Origin: Verrucomicrobium sp. GAS474
GTDB taxonomy: Bacteria; Verrucomicrobiota; Verrucomicrobiia; Methylacidiphilales; GAS474
Length of the DNA: 64,000 nt
Direction: 5' to 3'
NCBI RefSeq assembly: GCF_900105685.1
Contig: NZ_LT629781.1
Coordinates: 1,922,001 to 1,986,000, forward strand
How positions within the stretch are numbered: position 1 is the first letter of the stretch; every line of letters begins with the position of its first letter. Both the position numbers and the translations under genes were made by a program. Shown here piece after piece: positions 37,187 to 42,493 of this stretch. The notes under the pieces are model-generated. The model had not been told where the DNA came from. It saw nothing but the letters and a program-made list of their open reading frames with translations, and did not search any database.

Positions 37187-38425
37187 TCAGGCCGCGGGGG
37201 GCGGCGGCTGGATCAGCGGGGAGATTGGCGAAGGCGACGCTCCCGGGACCGCCGGATCGATGGGGCTGGCGGGGGGGACGGGATTCACCGGCGAGGCCGG
37301 AGCAAGGGGGGAGACGGCGGCGACCGGGGAAATCGGCGAGCCGAGGGGAGAAATCGCCGGAGCGGGGCTGACCGGGGACATGGGAGAAGCCGCCGCCGCG
37401 CCGCCGCCGAGGGGAGAAAGCGGGGAGACCGGGGCCACGGAAGAGGCCGGAGGGACAACCGGAGCAGGCGGCTGCGGATCGTCCATCACCTGATTGAAGG
37501 CGACCTTCTGGTTGTGGAAATCACGGACTTTCTTCTGGAGGGCGATCGAGATCTCGTGGCACTTCGTCACCGCCTCGTTGATGGCGGTGATGCTGCTCTT
37601 CATCGGGGAGTCCTCGGGGCAGTCGCAATCGAGCAGGTAGGCGAAGCCCATGAGGGAGGTGAGCTGGTTGTTGAAGTCGTGGATCAGCTTCCGCATGTCG
37701 GAGCCGACCTGGACGTCGTCGGAGAAGGGGAAGAGCTTGCGGATGGCGATCTCCCAATCGGCGCGGCGGGTGATCTTGCCGTTGAAGGCGTCGGTCTTGA
37801 CGATGACGACGGGCTGCCCCAGCGCCTCGACGGCGGCGGTGTCGTCGGTCACGAGGCCGCCCTGGGCGGCGACATGGGCGTAGGCCTCGACGAGGAGGGT
37901 GCGGCGGAAGATCTGCGGCGTCTGGACGGCCCAGACGCGGCTCCGGTCGACGGTGTGCTCGACGGCCGCGATCTCGAGGTCGGCCCCGGTGCTCCCCTCG
38001 CCGATGACCTTCAGGGTGTCGTTCGACGGATGGCCGCAGACGGCGGCCCCGTGTTCCCGCGCGGCGGCGAGGACGGCGGAGATGATCCCGGGGGAGACGA
38101 AGGGACGGGCCGCGTCCTGGATCAGGACATATTCCAGGGCGGGATCGAGGGCCTTCAGCCCTTCCATGACCGAGTCCTGCCGCTCGGCCCCGCCGACGAC
38201 GACGGAGATCGGCTTCGCGGCCGAGGCGGGGAGGAGCCCCTGGACGACGGAGACGTTCCCCTCCGAGGTGGCGATGACGATGTGGGCGACGTCGGGGGAG
38301 GCGAGGAGGCCGTCGAGGGTGAACTGGAAGACCGTCTTGCCCAGGACAGGGGTGAAGAGCTTGTCGAAGCCGAGGCGGCGGCTCGATCCGGCGGCGGCGA
38401 GGACGACTCCCAGCGTGGCGCTCAT
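37187..38425 (-). CDS. ispD: IspD cytidylyltransferase fused to a histidine-kinase-type DHp domain and Pro/Ser-rich tail
   Basis: 412 residues. Residues 1-232 are a complete IspD (MEP cytidylyltransferase of isoprenoid synthesis): LAAAGSSRRLGFDK, LIQDAARPFV, QTPQIF, VTDDTAAVE and NGKITRRADW. Residues 243-301 form a helical hairpin with His249 in KLIHDFNNQLTSLMG, the H-box pattern of HisKA domains. No ATPase domain follows, so it resembles a stand-alone phosphotransfer/dimerisation module. Residues about 316-412 are a low-complexity SP-rich tail (SPLSPLG, SPMSPVSP repeats). E. coli IspD has 236 residues. The start overlaps the mlaD stop (ATGA). Confidence 0.9.
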   Translation of the reverse strand: MSATLGVVLAAAGSSRRLGFDKLFTPVLGKTVFQFTLDGLLASPDVAHIVIATSEGNVSVVQGLLPASAAKPISVVVGGAERQDSVMEGLKALDPALEYVLIQDAARPFVSPGIISAVLAAAREHGAAVCGHPSNDTLKVIGEGSTGADLEIAAVEHTVDRSRVWAVQTPQIFRRTLLVEAYAHVAAQGGLVTDDTAAVEALGQPVVIVKTDAFNGKITRRADWEIAIRKLFPFSDDVQVGSDMRKLIHDFNNQLTSLMGFAYLLDCDCPEDSPMKSSITAINEAVTKCHEISIALQKKVRDFHNQKVAFNQVMDDPQPPAPVVPPASSVAPVSPLSPLGGGAAAASPMSPVSPAPAISPLGSPISPVAAVSPLAPASPVNPVPPASPIDPAVPGASPSPISPLIQPPPPAA

Positions 38426-39180
38426 CGGTTTTTATCCCGTTGCCCGTCGTCGTCCTTCGCGGCGACGTCGGAGTAGAAGAGGATCCCCTTTTTGCGGAGG
38501 TTGGTGACGAAGGCCTTGAAGTCGTTGGCGGTCTTCGGGTCCTTCAGCATGACGCCGAGGGTCCCCTTGCCGTTCTGGGCCTCGGCGAGGAGGGCGTCGG
38601 TCCGGGTGAGGACGGAGCGGAGCTGCTTGATCGAGGCGCGGAGGTCGGCAGTGGTCTCCGGGGTCATCACCTCGCGGTTGAACTTGTCGGTGATCTGCTG
38701 CATCTGGGCCAGGATCGGCTGGGCGGCGGAGGCGAGGTTGGAGAGGTCGGAGGTGGTCTTGCCCTGGACGGTGTCGCCGTCGTTGAGGAAGGGGGCCTTC
38801 GAGTCGTAGACCGGCTCGATGGCGACGTTGCGGTCCCCCATCAGGCCGACCTCGGCGATGCGGAAGGTGGCGTCGGAGCGGACCTTCGCCTTGCTGAGGA
38901 GGCGGAGCTGCACCTGGACGCCGCTGCCGTCGTCGAGGGCCTGCGGGGCGGAGCTGACGCGGCCGACGGGGGCCCCGGCGAAGTTGACCGAGGCGCCCTT
39001 GATGAGGCCGCTGGCGTTGGGGAAGTTGACGGTCACGCCGTAGGTATTCGCCCATTTCTCGCCGACGCGCCCGAAGAAGATCATCAGGGCGGCGATCAGG
39101 ACGAGGCCGATGAGGACGAAGAGGCCGACCTTGGTCTCAAGGTTGGTGTCGCGGCGGAGGCTGGAGGCGGTGGAGGCCAT
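38422..39180 (-). CDS. mlaD: MlaD-family MCE lipid-transport protein
   Basis: 252 residues. An N-terminal membrane anchor (VGLFVLIGLVLIAALMIFF) is followed by one MCE domain (about residues 45-125; GLIKGASVNFAGAPVGRV). A helical C-terminal region includes LRSVLTRTDALLAEA. MCE proteins form hexameric rings that carry phospholipids across the periplasm with the MlaFE ABC complex. It lies downstream of mlaE and mlaF after a 125-base gap and is coupled to the ispD fusion by an ATGA overlap. Confidence 0.9.
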   Translation of the reverse strand: MASTASSLRRDTNLETKVGLFVLIGLVLIAALMIFFGRVGEKWANTYGVTVNFPNASGLIKGASVNFAGAPVGRVSSAPQALDDGSGVQVQLRLLSKAKVRSDATFRIAEVGLMGDRNVAIEPVYDSKAPFLNDGDTVQGKTTSDLSNLASAAQPILAQMQQITDKFNREVMTPETTADLRASIKQLRSVLTRTDALLAEAQNGKGTLGVMLKDPKTANDFKAFVTNLRKKGILFYSDVAAKDDDGQRDKNR

Positions 39181-39305
39181 GGGACGATATCAAGTAGGCA
39201 GGGGCGTTTCGCGGAGGTCAATGCGTTTTTCGCTGGCGTGGAGACGTTTCCGAAAGGGGCAGGAGGAGGGATTTTGGAAAACTTTAAGGGGAACGGGGCG
39301 GGAGA

Positions 39306-40046
39306 TCAGAGGATATCCCCCTTGGAGATGCCGTGGAGGAAGTCGTGGAGGACGGGATCGGTCGAAGCCTGGAGCTCGGCGGGGGTGACGAGGGCGTAGA
39401 TCTTCCCCTCGTGGAGCATGGCGATCCGGTCGGCGATCTGGCAGGCGCTCGCCATGTCGTGGGTGACGACGATGGCCGTCATCGAGAGGTCGCGGGAGAG
39501 GCGGGAGATGAGCTTGCTGATGCTGTCGGAGAGGATCGGGTCGAGGCCGGCGGTCGGCTCGTCGTAGAACATGATCTTCGGCTTCCCGATGGCGGCGCGG
39601 GCGAGGGCGGCCCGCTTCCGCATGCCGCCGCTGAGGTCGGAGGGCATCTTGTCCCCGTGGCCGGCGAGGCCGACGAGTTCCAGCGCCCGGTCGACCCGGC
39701 ATTGGAGCTCGGCCTGGGTGAGGTGTTCCCGCTCGACGAGGGGGAAGGCGATGTTCTCCCCGACGGTCATCGAGTCGAAGAGGGCGCCGTTCTGGAAGAC
39801 CATCCCCATCTCGCGGCGGAGGGGGAGGAGCTCCGGCTCGTCGAGCTCGGTGAGGTTCGTCCCGTCGTACCAGACCTCGCCCGCGTCGGGGAGCATGAGG
39901 CCGAGGAGGTGCTTCAGGAGGACGCTCTTCCCGCCGCCGCTCCGGCCGATGACGACGAGGATCTCCCCGGTCCGGATCTCGAGGTCGACGCCCTTGAGGA
40001 TCTCCTGGCCGGAGATGCTTTTGCGGAGTTGTTTGACCTGGATCAT
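39306..40046 (-). CDS. mlaF: MlaF-family ABC transporter ATP-binding protein
   Basis: 246 residues. Walker A is GRSGGGKSVL near residue 36, the signature DLSGGMRKRAALARA near residue 138, Walker B IMFYDEPTAGLDP, and the switch His is in VVTHDM. The Ser-Gly-Gly-Gly form of Walker A is typical of the Mla/Ttg2A group. It powers MlaE-dependent lipid transport between inner and outer membranes. It starts 7 bases after mlaE, in the order mlaE-mlaF-mlaD. Confidence 0.92.
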   Translation of the reverse strand: MIQVKQLRKSISGQEILKGVDLEIRTGEILVVIGRSGGGKSVLLKHLLGLMLPDAGEVWYDGTNLTELDEPELLPLRREMGMVFQNGALFDSMTVGENIAFPLVEREHLTQAELQCRVDRALELVGLAGHGDKMPSDLSGGMRKRAALARAAIGKPKIMFYDEPTAGLDPILSDSISKLISRLSRDLSMTAIVVTHDMASACQIADRIAMLHEGKIYALVTPAELQASTDPVLHDFLHGISKGDIL

Positions 40047-40053
40047 CGGCGAT

Positions 40054-40839
40054 TTAGGCGGGGAAGATCGCGTTGAGGAGGAAGCTGAAGAAGAAGTTCG
40101 AGACCAGGACGATCAGCGAGGCGTGGACGGCGGCGTTCGTCGTCGCCTGGCCGACGCCCTCGGCGCCGTGGCCCGCGTTGAGGCCCTTGTAGATGCCGAC
40201 CAGGGCGATGATGAGGCCGAAGAAGCAGGCCTTGATCAGGCCGATGGCAACGTCCTTCGGCTCCATGTACTGCGTCATGTGGGCGATGTAGTAGGCCCCG
40301 TCGATGTCCATGATCATGACGGCGACGACCCAGCTGGCCGCGATGCCGACGGCCATCGAGAGGCCGACGAGGATCGGGGTGGAGAGGGTGACGGCGAGGA
40401 AGCGGGGGATGAGGAGGTATTCCGTCGGCGGGACGGCGAGGGCGCGGAGGGCGTCGAGCTGCTCCGTGAGGCGCATGGTGGAGAGCTCCGCCGCGATGGA
40501 GGAGCCGACGCGGCCCGCCAGCATCAGGGCGCAGAGGACGGGGCCGAGTTCCCGGCACATCGCCACGGCGACGACGGGGCCGGTGGCCGTCGACATCCCC
40601 ATCTCCCGGAAGCGGAAGAGGATCTGGGCCGTGAAGACCGCCCCGCTGAAGCCGCCCGTGACGAGGATGATCGTCTGCGAGCGGAGGCCGGTGAAATACA
40701 TCTGCCGGAGGAACTGCCGCCACCGGAGGGGCCGGGTGAAGAGGGTCTTCACGAGGTCGGCCAGGAGGAAGCAGATCTCCCCCGTGGCACGGATCAGCCC
40801 GAGGACCATGGCACCGAGATGGAAGACGAAAACGTTCAA
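40054..40839 (-). CDS. mlaE: MlaE-family ABC transporter permease
   Basis: 261 residues with an amphipathic N-terminal segment and five hydrophobic helices. Family blocks include SQTIILVTGGFSGAVFT and the cytoplasmic coupling loop RELGPVLCALMLAGRVGSSI near residue 120, followed by LSTMRLTEQLDALRAL. It forms the membrane part of the lipid transporter with MlaF and MlaD. The gene is the first of the mla group. The receiver-domain gene upstream lies 71 bases away on the same strand. Confidence 0.92.
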   Translation of the reverse strand: MNVFVFHLGAMVLGLIRATGEICFLLADLVKTLFTRPLRWRQFLRQMYFTGLRSQTIILVTGGFSGAVFTAQILFRFREMGMSTATGPVVAVAMCRELGPVLCALMLAGRVGSSIAAELSTMRLTEQLDALRALAVPPTEYLLIPRFLAVTLSTPILVGLSMAVGIAASWVVAVMIMDIDGAYYIAHMTQYMEPKDVAIGLIKACFFGLIIALVGIYKGLNAGHGAEGVGQATTNAAVHASLIVLVSNFFFSFLLNAIFPA

Positions 40840-40910: not shown

Positions 40911-41555
40911 TCAAAGCTGCCGGATCATCTCGCCGAGGCTCTGGAGCTGGAAGGGCTTCGAGAGGATGTGGGAGAAGCCCTCGGCGATGAGTTCCGCGTG
41001 GATCGTGTCGTCGATGTAGCCGCTGCAGGCGACGACCTTCAGGTGCCGTTCCCCGGCGATCCGCAACTGCTGCCAGACGTCCCGGCCGCCGATGCTGCCG
41101 GGGATGATGAGGTCGAAGATCGCGATGTCGAAGGGGTCGCCCGTCTCGACGGCCCGCCGCCAGGCCGTCACCGCGTCGTTCCCCCGGCGGGTGACCACCG
41201 CGCGGTGGCCCAGCCGCTGCAGCATCGTCGAGAGCATGCTGCAGGTGGAGGGATCGTCGTCGAGGATCAGGATCTTCCTCTCCTTGAACTCGCCGACCGA
41301 GGTGCGGGTCGAGACCGAATCGTCCGGGAGGGACTGCGCCCAGTCCTGCTGCATCTCCATCCGCAGGGAGCGGATCTCGGCGATCAGCGTCTGGTTCAGC
41401 GTCACCGTCTGCTGGAGCAGTGGGATCGAGCGGGTCCGGGCCGAGGTGACCTCCTCCCGGATCTTCTCCAGCTTCCGCAGGACCAGCCCCACGAGGACCA
41501 CGGCCCCCGCCCCGAGGAGCGCGCCGAGGATCAGGAGAAAGGAGTGAGTATCCAT
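40911..41555 (-). CDS. Membrane-anchored receiver-domain protein
   Basis: 214 residues. A single N-terminal membrane helix (about 7-26) and a coiled-coil-like linker (about 28-75, ending EIRSLRMEMQQDW) lead to a receiver domain (about 93-214). The active site is intact: LDDDPS acidic pair, Asp in IFDLIIPGSIGG, Ser in VACSGY and Lys in LSKPF. Receivers tethered to the membrane without any output domain are unusual. It could act as a phosphate sink or local dock near an inner-membrane partner. It precedes mlaE in the same direction by 71 bases, so a link with lipid transport is possible but unproven. Confidence 0.85.
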   Translation of the reverse strand: MDTHSFLLILGALLGAGAVVLVGLVLRKLEKIREEVTSARTRSIPLLQQTVTLNQTLIAEIRSLRMEMQQDWAQSLPDDSVSTRTSVGEFKERKILILDDDPSTCSMLSTMLQRLGHRAVVTRRGNDAVTAWRRAVETGDPFDIAIFDLIIPGSIGGRDVWQQLRIAGERHLKVVACSGYIDDTIHAELIAEGFSHILSKPFQLQSLGEMIRQL

Positions 41556-41640: not shown

Positions 41641-42036
41641 TCAGATGTGCTTCGAGTCGTTGTGATCCTTCACCGCGTAGCCCGATTCCTGGCGCTTCAG
41701 GTTCACCTCGTGCTTCTGCTGGTAGGCGGCGAAGATATCGTCGGCCGTCATCCCCAGCACCTGCGCCATCGAGACGAGGAAGTGGAAGAGGTCGACGATC
41801 TCGACCCGGGCATTCTGTTCGTCGAACTTCTGGTACTTCGCCCACCACTTCCACGGGACGCTGTCGATCAGCTCCGCCATCTCCTGGCTCATCGCGCGGG
41901 TGTAATTCAGGATCCACTTCGTCTTCTCCTCCTCGCTCATCGCGGTCGTGTCGACGCCGATCCGCTTGTTCAGCGCCTCCTGGAGGCGGAAGATTTCCTG
42001 GAGCTTATCGACAGACGGGGCGGGGGAATTGGACAT
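41641..42036 (-). CDS. Dimeric dUTPase-like all-alpha NTP pyrophosphatase
   Basis: 131 residues, all helical. The metal-binding pattern of the dimeric dUTPase/MazG superfamily is visible: LSQEMAEL-type ExxE (here SQEMAELIDSVPWKWW near residue 50) and VEIVDLFHFLVSMAQ (ExxxD) near residue 78. The ending YQQKHEVNLKRQESGY matches the dUTPase_2 group. It would hydrolyse dUTP or a related nucleotide to keep uracil out of DNA. It stands between the receiver gene and the DCC gene, both on the same strand. Confidence 0.85.
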   Translation of the reverse strand: MSNSPAPSVDKLQEIFRLQEALNKRIGVDTTAMSEEEKTKWILNYTRAMSQEMAELIDSVPWKWWAKYQKFDEQNARVEIVDLFHFLVSMAQVLGMTADDIFAAYQQKHEVNLKRQESGYAVKDHNDSKHI

Positions 42037-42067: not shown

Positions 42068-42493
42068 CTAGTCGAGAAAAAGCGCCCGTTCCTCCGGGGA
42101 GGGGAGGCGGCACGTCTCCCGTTTCCCGAACAGGCGGTAACGGTGGCGGGCGATCAGGCGGTAGAAGAAGTTGCGGATCGGCCGGGGAACGAGCCGCCCA
42201 TAGCGGAGCCACCCCCACCCCCCCGGCAGCCGGGCCAGGACCGCGAAGGTCGCGTCCGACTCGAGGTAAAGGCGCTCCGTCCCGTCGGGCCGGGGCTCCG
42301 CCGCCACCACCGTCTCCGTCCCCGCCGTGAGCCCCGGATGGCGGGCCTTCAGGGCCGCGAAGGCCTGCCCCTGCTGCGAGGCGTAACGGAGGCGCCGCCC
42401 CGTGTCCCGCCGGATGGCGAAATCGACGAAGGCATTGCAGAGAGAGCAAACGCCGTCGAAATAAACCACCATGGGTTCGGGATGATCGGTCAC
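42068..42493 (-). CDS. DCC family (DUF393) thiol-disulfide oxidoreductase-like protein
   Basis: 141 residues. The defining motif is VVYFDGVCSLCNAFVDF near residue 9, with the conserved Asp and the C-x2-C redox pair. A thioredoxin-like fold (RYASQQGQAFAALKA, then a hydrophobic C-terminal helix region with GWLRYGRLVPRPIRNFFYRLIA) is expected. The substrate is unknown. It is the last protein gene before tRNA-Ser and the lower-GC island. Confidence 0.88.
   Translation of the reverse strand: MTDHPEPMVVYFDGVCSLCNAFVDFAIRRDTGRRLRYASQQGQAFAALKARHPGLTAGTETVVAAEPRPDGTERLYLESDATFAVLARLPGGWGWLRYGRLVPRPIRNFFYRLIARHRYRLFGKRETCRLPSPEERALFLD

What the first reader, a model, noticed from the sequence alone, without database searches (positions are those of the whole stretch)
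37187..38425. IspD fused to a histidine-kinase-type dimerisation/phosphotransfer hairpin and an SP-repeat tail
Seen: a full IspD (1-232) continues in frame into KLIHDFNNQLTSLMG, a clear H-box, with no ATPase domain, then about 95 residues of Ser-Pro-rich low complexity. I know of no described link between MEP-pathway IspD and two-component phosphotransfer. The domain might dimerise the enzyme, accept phosphate on His249, or dock a receiver such as the membrane-anchored one encoded at 40911-41555.
Basis: partly seen in the sequence, partly recalled or inferred. Interest (0 to 1): 0.72.

Follow-up and report, generated by a model that had tools for sequence, protein, structure and literature searches.

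The report
Isoprenoid enzyme carrying a kinase-derived hairpin
In many bacteria of one verrucomicrobial order, the isoprenoid-making enzyme IspD carries at its end a conserved helical hairpin borrowed from signalling kinases but without the kinase part, which suggests that an essential metabolic enzyme is wired into two-component signalling in a way not described before.

Summary
Window 37187-38425 (-) encodes an intact IspD (residues 1-232) fused in frame to a HisKA-type DHp hairpin (about 233-315, His249 in helix 1). There is no ATPase domain, and a Pro/Ser-rich tail follows. The hairpin is under purifying selection and occurs at the IspD C-terminus in 22 of 62 genomes of the order (Methylacidiphilales) across six families. 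I found it nowhere else in the class or phylum samples. Five residues are invariant in 18 sequences: R245, H249, N253, G260, R301. The H+1 acid needed for kinase activity is not invariant (D, R, A or Q); the H+4 Asn needed for receiver-phosphatase activity is. Genomes with the hairpin hold 21-62+ receivers, and genomes without it 2-12, even inside one genus, while an ABC-transporter control overlaps. The DHp of a DHp-receiver protein in one relative is most similar to the IspD hairpin. I conclude that this is a receiver-docking, phosphatase- or phosphotransfer-competent DHp module that couples IspD to two-component signalling. The direction of information flow and the partner are unknown. The neighbouring membrane receiver is a plausible partner only in this genus. 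The tail is genus-specific low complexity.

The parts
37187..38425 (-). ispD-DHp fusion gene (412 aa)
   Evidence: ORF and family matches
37730..38425 (-). IspD cytidylyltransferase domain, residues 1-232; columns invariant among relatives include R17, K22, D104, R107, D136, K139, D160, R161, K217
   Evidence: Pfam and NCBIfam; alignment A3; Foldseek to IspD structures, best E 5e-22
37481..37729 (-). DHp-like hairpin, residues 233-315 (helix 233-268, helix 276-315)
   Evidence: AF2 models; conserved in 22 genomes; HisKA homology
37679..37681 (-). codon of His249, invariant candidate phospho-acceptor
37667..37669 (-). codon of Asn253 (H+4), invariant; equivalent of the HisKA phosphatase Thr/Asn
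   Evidence: PMC3510030
37187..37480 (-). Pro/Ser-rich low-complexity tail, only in the genus
38422..39180 (-). mlaD-like gene, overlaps the ispD start by 4 bases
39306..40046 (-). mlaF-like ABC ATPase of the same gene cluster
   Evidence: ORF, conserved order; name from sequence similarity by eye
40054..40839 (-). mlaE-like permease of the same gene cluster
   Evidence: ORF, conserved order; name from sequence similarity by eye
40911..41555 (-). membrane-anchored stand-alone receiver; possible partner in this genus only
   Evidence: Response_reg 1.3e-13; neighbour only in G260

Best explanation
The IspD of this order acquired once, and several lineages later lost, a DHp hairpin of HPK4/HisKA ancestry without a catalytic (CA) domain. 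The hairpin probably dimerises as a four-helix bundle and docks phosphorylated receiver domains at the His249/Asn253 face. There it dephosphorylates them or exchanges the phosphoryl group, and so couples IspD to two-component signalling. IspD sits N-terminal of DHp helix 1, where kinases carry their sensor or input domain. Either receiver docking tunes IspD (DivL-like reversed flow), or IspD substrate occupancy tunes the fate of the phosphorylated receiver (trigger-enzyme-like). Shown here: fusion, conservation, invariant residues, fold prediction, co-occurrence with two-component systems. Inferred: dimerisation, docking, phosphochemistry, coupling and its direction.
For: 1) In-frame fusion in 22 of 62 genomes of the order and six families, with a profile score gap of at least 83 bits against at most 45 for true kinases. 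2) Homology to HisKA: 13 of 18 members match PF00512, best 1.9e-7; the same profile finds the genomes' own kinases. 3) AF2 hairpin at pLDDT about 78-92 in the full model and 93-97 over most of the hairpin alone; Foldseek's top hits for the hairpin are kinases and DHp domains (ZraS, 6lgq, RetS/GacS, CpxA; probability up to 1.00, E about 0.1). 4) H249 and N253 invariant, with R245, G260, R301 and nearly Q297. The H+1 acid is lost in some lineages but is D/E in every kinase DHp seen in the same order and class. In HisKA proteins the acid is needed for kinase, the Thr/Asn for phosphatase, and a DHp alone suffices for phosphatase in NtrB and EnvZ (PMC3510030). 5) Receivers per genome: 21-62+ with the hairpin, 2-12 without; HATPase 12-64 against 3-11; ABC control 28-54 against 16-40, overlapping. 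Inside genus g9: 21 receivers against 4, 4, 7, 7, ABC 39 against 32-40. 6) A DHp-receiver protein without CA in G080 (L092) has its closest DHp matches among IspD-fused hairpins, E about 8e-7.
Against: No partner gene is conserved next to the fusion. The window's own hairpin does not match HisKA by itself. The co-occurrence rests on about three or four independent losses and could reflect general genome simplification. No biochemistry exists. Several lineages live with IspD lacking the hairpin, so it is not needed for catalysis.
Confidence: 0.5

Rival explanations
1. The hairpin is only a structural dimerisation or stabilising tail of IspD; the H-box is inherited sequence without phosphochemistry.
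For: DHp hairpins dimerise, IspD is itself dimeric (established knowledge), no ATPase domain, no conserved partner gene.
Against: The invariant residues are polar (R245, H249, N253, R301, nearly Q297) rather than the hydrophobic core. The hairpin vanishes in genomes poor in two-component systems, which a structural tail would not explain.
Confidence: 0.22
2. The hairpin is a true phosphotransfer intermediate (Spo0B/ChpT-like): it takes phosphate from one receiver on His249 and passes it to another, with IspD as mere carrier or regulated output.
For: Invariant His, no CA domain, receiver-rich genomes; a DHp-receiver protein in G080.
Against: Known CA-less relays (Spo0B, ChpT) keep a CA-like fold; here none is present. 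No second receiver gene is linked in other families.
Confidence: 0.18
3. A histidine kinase in trans (for example with its CA domain) phosphorylates His249 directly to switch IspD.
For: The genome has about 62 HATPase domains; His249 invariant.
Against: The acidic H+1 residue that supports kinase-type phosphorylation is lost in several lineages; trans phosphorylation of a foreign DHp is rare.
Confidence: 0.07

Closest known systems
HisKA DHp domain of HPK4-type histidine kinases (Pfam PF00512)
   Same: helical hairpin, H-D-x-N-N-x-L H-box, Gly at H+11, Arg near the end of helix 2; profile homology
   Different: no CA/ATPase domain; Arg instead of Gly at H-4; H+1 acid not kept in all; attached to a biosynthetic enzyme
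DivL pseudokinase of Caulobacter (PMC4211667)
   Same: precedent for a DHp used as a docking sensor for a phosphorylated receiver, with reversed information flow
   Different: DivL keeps a CA-like domain and has Tyr for His; here His is invariant and the output or input is an enzyme
Spo0B and ChpT histidine phosphotransferases
   Same: DHp-type phosphotransfer without autokinase (own knowledge; ChpT also PMC3433190, abstract)
   Different: they keep a degenerate CA domain and carry no metabolic enzyme
IspD and IspDF
   Same: IspD domain with the residues conserved among relatives intact; C-terminal fusions to IspD are known as IspDF (NF006899)
   Different: fused to a signalling hairpin, not to IspF

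Membership tests
IspD (TIGR00453 / PF01128) | score above curated cut-off and conserved residues of the family | tested here: met
   194.4 bits against 181.3 cut-off; PF01128 169.7 against 27; invariant columns in A3
IspD (TIGR00453 / PF01128) | CTP:MEP cytidylyltransferase activity | not testable with these tools
   needs an enzyme assay
HisKA DHp domain | profile match to PF00512 | tested here: inconclusive
   13 of 18 family members match, best 1.9e-7, but the window's own hairpin alone does not
HisKA DHp domain | two-helix antiparallel hairpin with His in helix 1 | tested here: met
   AF2 models; DHp structures top Foldseek by probability, E about 0.1
HisKA DHp domain | invariant His and Thr/Asn at H+4 | tested here: met
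   H249 and N253 in 18 of 18
HisKA DHp domain | acidic residue at H+1 | tested here: inconclusive
   D in the window and most relatives, R/A/Q in others
HisKA DHp domain | dimeric four-helix bundle | not testable with these tools
   no complex prediction on hand
Histidine kinase | HATPase_c (CA) domain after the DHp | tested here: not met
   no match in the protein; convergent gene follows
Spo0B/ChpT-type phosphotransferase | degenerate CA domain after the DHp | tested here: not met
   only a low-complexity tail or a stop follows the hairpin
DivL-type receiver sensor | specific binding of a phosphorylated receiver | not testable with these tools
   binding assay needed

The most novel reading that the evidence does not exclude
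An essential isoprenoid-pathway enzyme doubles as a two-component transmitter: IspD occupies the sensor position of a kinase-less DHp that dephosphorylates a receiver according to MEP or CTP supply (or is itself switched by that receiver), giving a direct link between the MEP pathway and two-component signalling.
Probability: 0.4. Interest if true: 0.85.

Novelty: new variant of a known kind. Interest (0 to 1): 0.66.

Why it matters
I found no paper linking IspD to a DHp or receiver. An order-wide fusion with invariant phosphochemistry residues, lost together with two-component systems, would be a clear case of a kinase-derived module moved onto a core metabolic enzyme. It would make testable whether MEP flux reads from or writes to two-component signalling.

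Tried and rejected
Membrane receiver at 40911-41555 as the conserved partner: rejected as general, because it lies next to ispD only in this species and G260. Frame error or chance ORF: rejected (22 genomes, purifying selection). Split gene in relatives that lack the hairpin: in G107 and G212 nothing remains downstream. Ser-Pro tail as a functional module: no other copy in the genome, no tandem array except a short GCC run, absent outside the genus. Viral contigs: no relatives. Two-helix comparison by VIA-align was uninformative: many unrelated coiled coils scored alike and kinases did not stand out. The genome-contig scan worked only with the closer subset A2 and found 12 loci, most of which seem to be contigs already found by the genome search; it is too narrow to prove absence elsewhere. 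A literature search on Methylacidiphilales with histidine kinase gave nothing.

Full report
What is there. Window 37187-38425 (-) is one open frame of 412 aa. Residues 7-227 are IspD (PF01128 1e-49, TIGR00453 above its curated cut-off) and the only ispD of this 3.76 Mb genome. The residues that are invariant in relatives with and without the extension are intact (R17, K22, D104, R107, D136, K139, D160, R161, K217 among them). The model matches IspD crystal structures (Foldseek E 5e-22). Residues 233-315 follow as a helical hairpin (helices 233-268 and 276-315) with His249 in the first helix. Residues 313-412 are low complexity (32 Pro, 16 Ser and 14 SP in 100 residues).

Distribution. In the class sample (384 genomes) and the order sample (62 genomes) the hairpin follows IspD in 22 genomes, all in the window's order: families f1 (3 of 3), f4 (11 of 12; the twelfth, 66% complete, has no ispD in its assembly), f7 (3), f5 (1), f9 (1) and f3 (3 of 7). 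Public records of some of the same contigs are named Candidatus Methylacidiphilales or UBA1321. It is absent in f2, f6, f8 and in four genomes of genus g9. Outside the order the best matches are ordinary kinases of 400-1500 aa, at 45 bits or less against 83-119 bits for the fusions. In the IspD tree the trait needs three changes. With the shared signature residues this reads best as one gain with losses in f2, f8 and part of g9; f6 was not in that tree, and the root was not fixed. In G107 and G212 the hairpin is cleanly gone.

Is it a DHp? By single-sequence Pfam search the window's own hairpin has no HisKA match, but 13 of 18 family members do, best 1.9e-7. A profile of the family finds kinases in the same genome at 4.6e-7 and weaker. 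In the PDB the first hits by sequence are a kinase (LvrB) and a DHp domain, not significant alone (0.05-0.08). Foldseek with the hairpin alone ranks kinases and DHp domains first (probability 0.97-1.00, E 0.1-0.5). VIA-align could not tell it from generic coiled coils. Together I accept a diverged HPK4-type HisKA origin.

Which residues are kept? In 18 sequences R245, H249, N253, G260 and R301 are invariant, Q297 and L264 nearly so. R245, H249, N253 and G260 are spaced i, i+4, i+8, i+15, so they lie along one face of helix 1 (own reasoning). The residue at H+1 is D in f1, f4, f7 and one f3 member, but R, A or Q elsewhere. In the kinases read from the same order and class it is always D or E, and position H-4 is mostly Gly. 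[quoted passage not shown]). The pattern (His and Asn fixed, acid free to change, no ATPase domain) fits a receiver-facing phosphatase, phosphotransfer or docking function, not an autokinase.

Link to two-component systems. Counting Pfam domains in the order, genomes with the hairpin hold 21-62 receivers (62 is the scoring cap) and 12-64 HATPase domains; those without hold 2-12 and 3-11. There is no overlap in either. The ABC-transporter control overlaps (28-54 against 16-40). In genomes of 2.2-3.3 Mb the receiver counts are 21-62 against 4-12. In genus g9 the one member with the hairpin has 21 receivers and 39 ABC domains; the four without have 4-7 and 32-40. The genome G289, in which no ispD was found, was left out of this comparison. 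This is a correlation over about three or four independent changes, so it is suggestive rather than proof; I ran no phylogenetic test. In G080 a 212-aa protein joins a DHp to a complete receiver without a CA domain. Searched across the order, its DHp is closest to the IspD-fused hairpins of f1 (E about 8e-7), ahead of the kinases. That is a fusion hint that this DHp type works with receivers.

Neighbourhood. ispD follows mlaE-mlaF-mlaD-like genes in most loci read, with and without the hairpin, and overlaps mlaD by 4 bases in the window. The membrane-anchored receiver upstream is shared only with G260. By eye it keeps the acidic pair, the phospho-Asp, Ser and Lys of receivers, so it is a candidate partner in this genus only.

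Mechanism. I favour a receiver-docking DHp that couples IspD to two-component signalling. Shown: fusion, selection, residues, predicted fold, co-occurrence. Inferred: dimerisation, docking, dephosphorylation or exchange, and the effect on or from IspD. DivL shows that a kinase core can be turned into a sensor for a phosphorylated receiver (PMC4211667). No paper found joins IspD and two-component proteins.

Noticed in passing
window 38422-40839 and loci L032-L050: An mlaE-mlaF-mlaD-ispD gene order is kept across several families of the order, also where IspD lacks the hairpin; ispD start overlaps mlaD stop. Possible link of envelope lipid transport and isoprenoid supply.
   Followed up: partly
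L092:1474-2112 (+): 212-aa protein joining a DHp without ATPase domain to a complete receiver; its DHp is closest to the IspD-fused hairpin.
   Followed up: partly
window 40911-41555 (-): Membrane-anchored stand-alone receiver with no output domain, found next to this operon only in two species of the genus; a second copy-like receiver lies at G000:C1:1664449-1665000.
   Followed up: partly
window 37187-37480 (-): Ser-Pro-rich tail present in the genus (G260 also), fast changing and with no other copy in the genome.
   Followed up: partly
L024, L027 (genus g9): Loss of most two-component genes (4-7 receivers in about 2-3 Mb) in close relatives of a genome with 21.
   Followed up: no
window 41641-42036 and 42068-42493 (-): dUTPase_2-like and DCC1-like thiol oxidoreductase genes lie upstream; both are next to the operon in G260, and some 5-8 kb away on the other strand in G102.
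   Followed up: no
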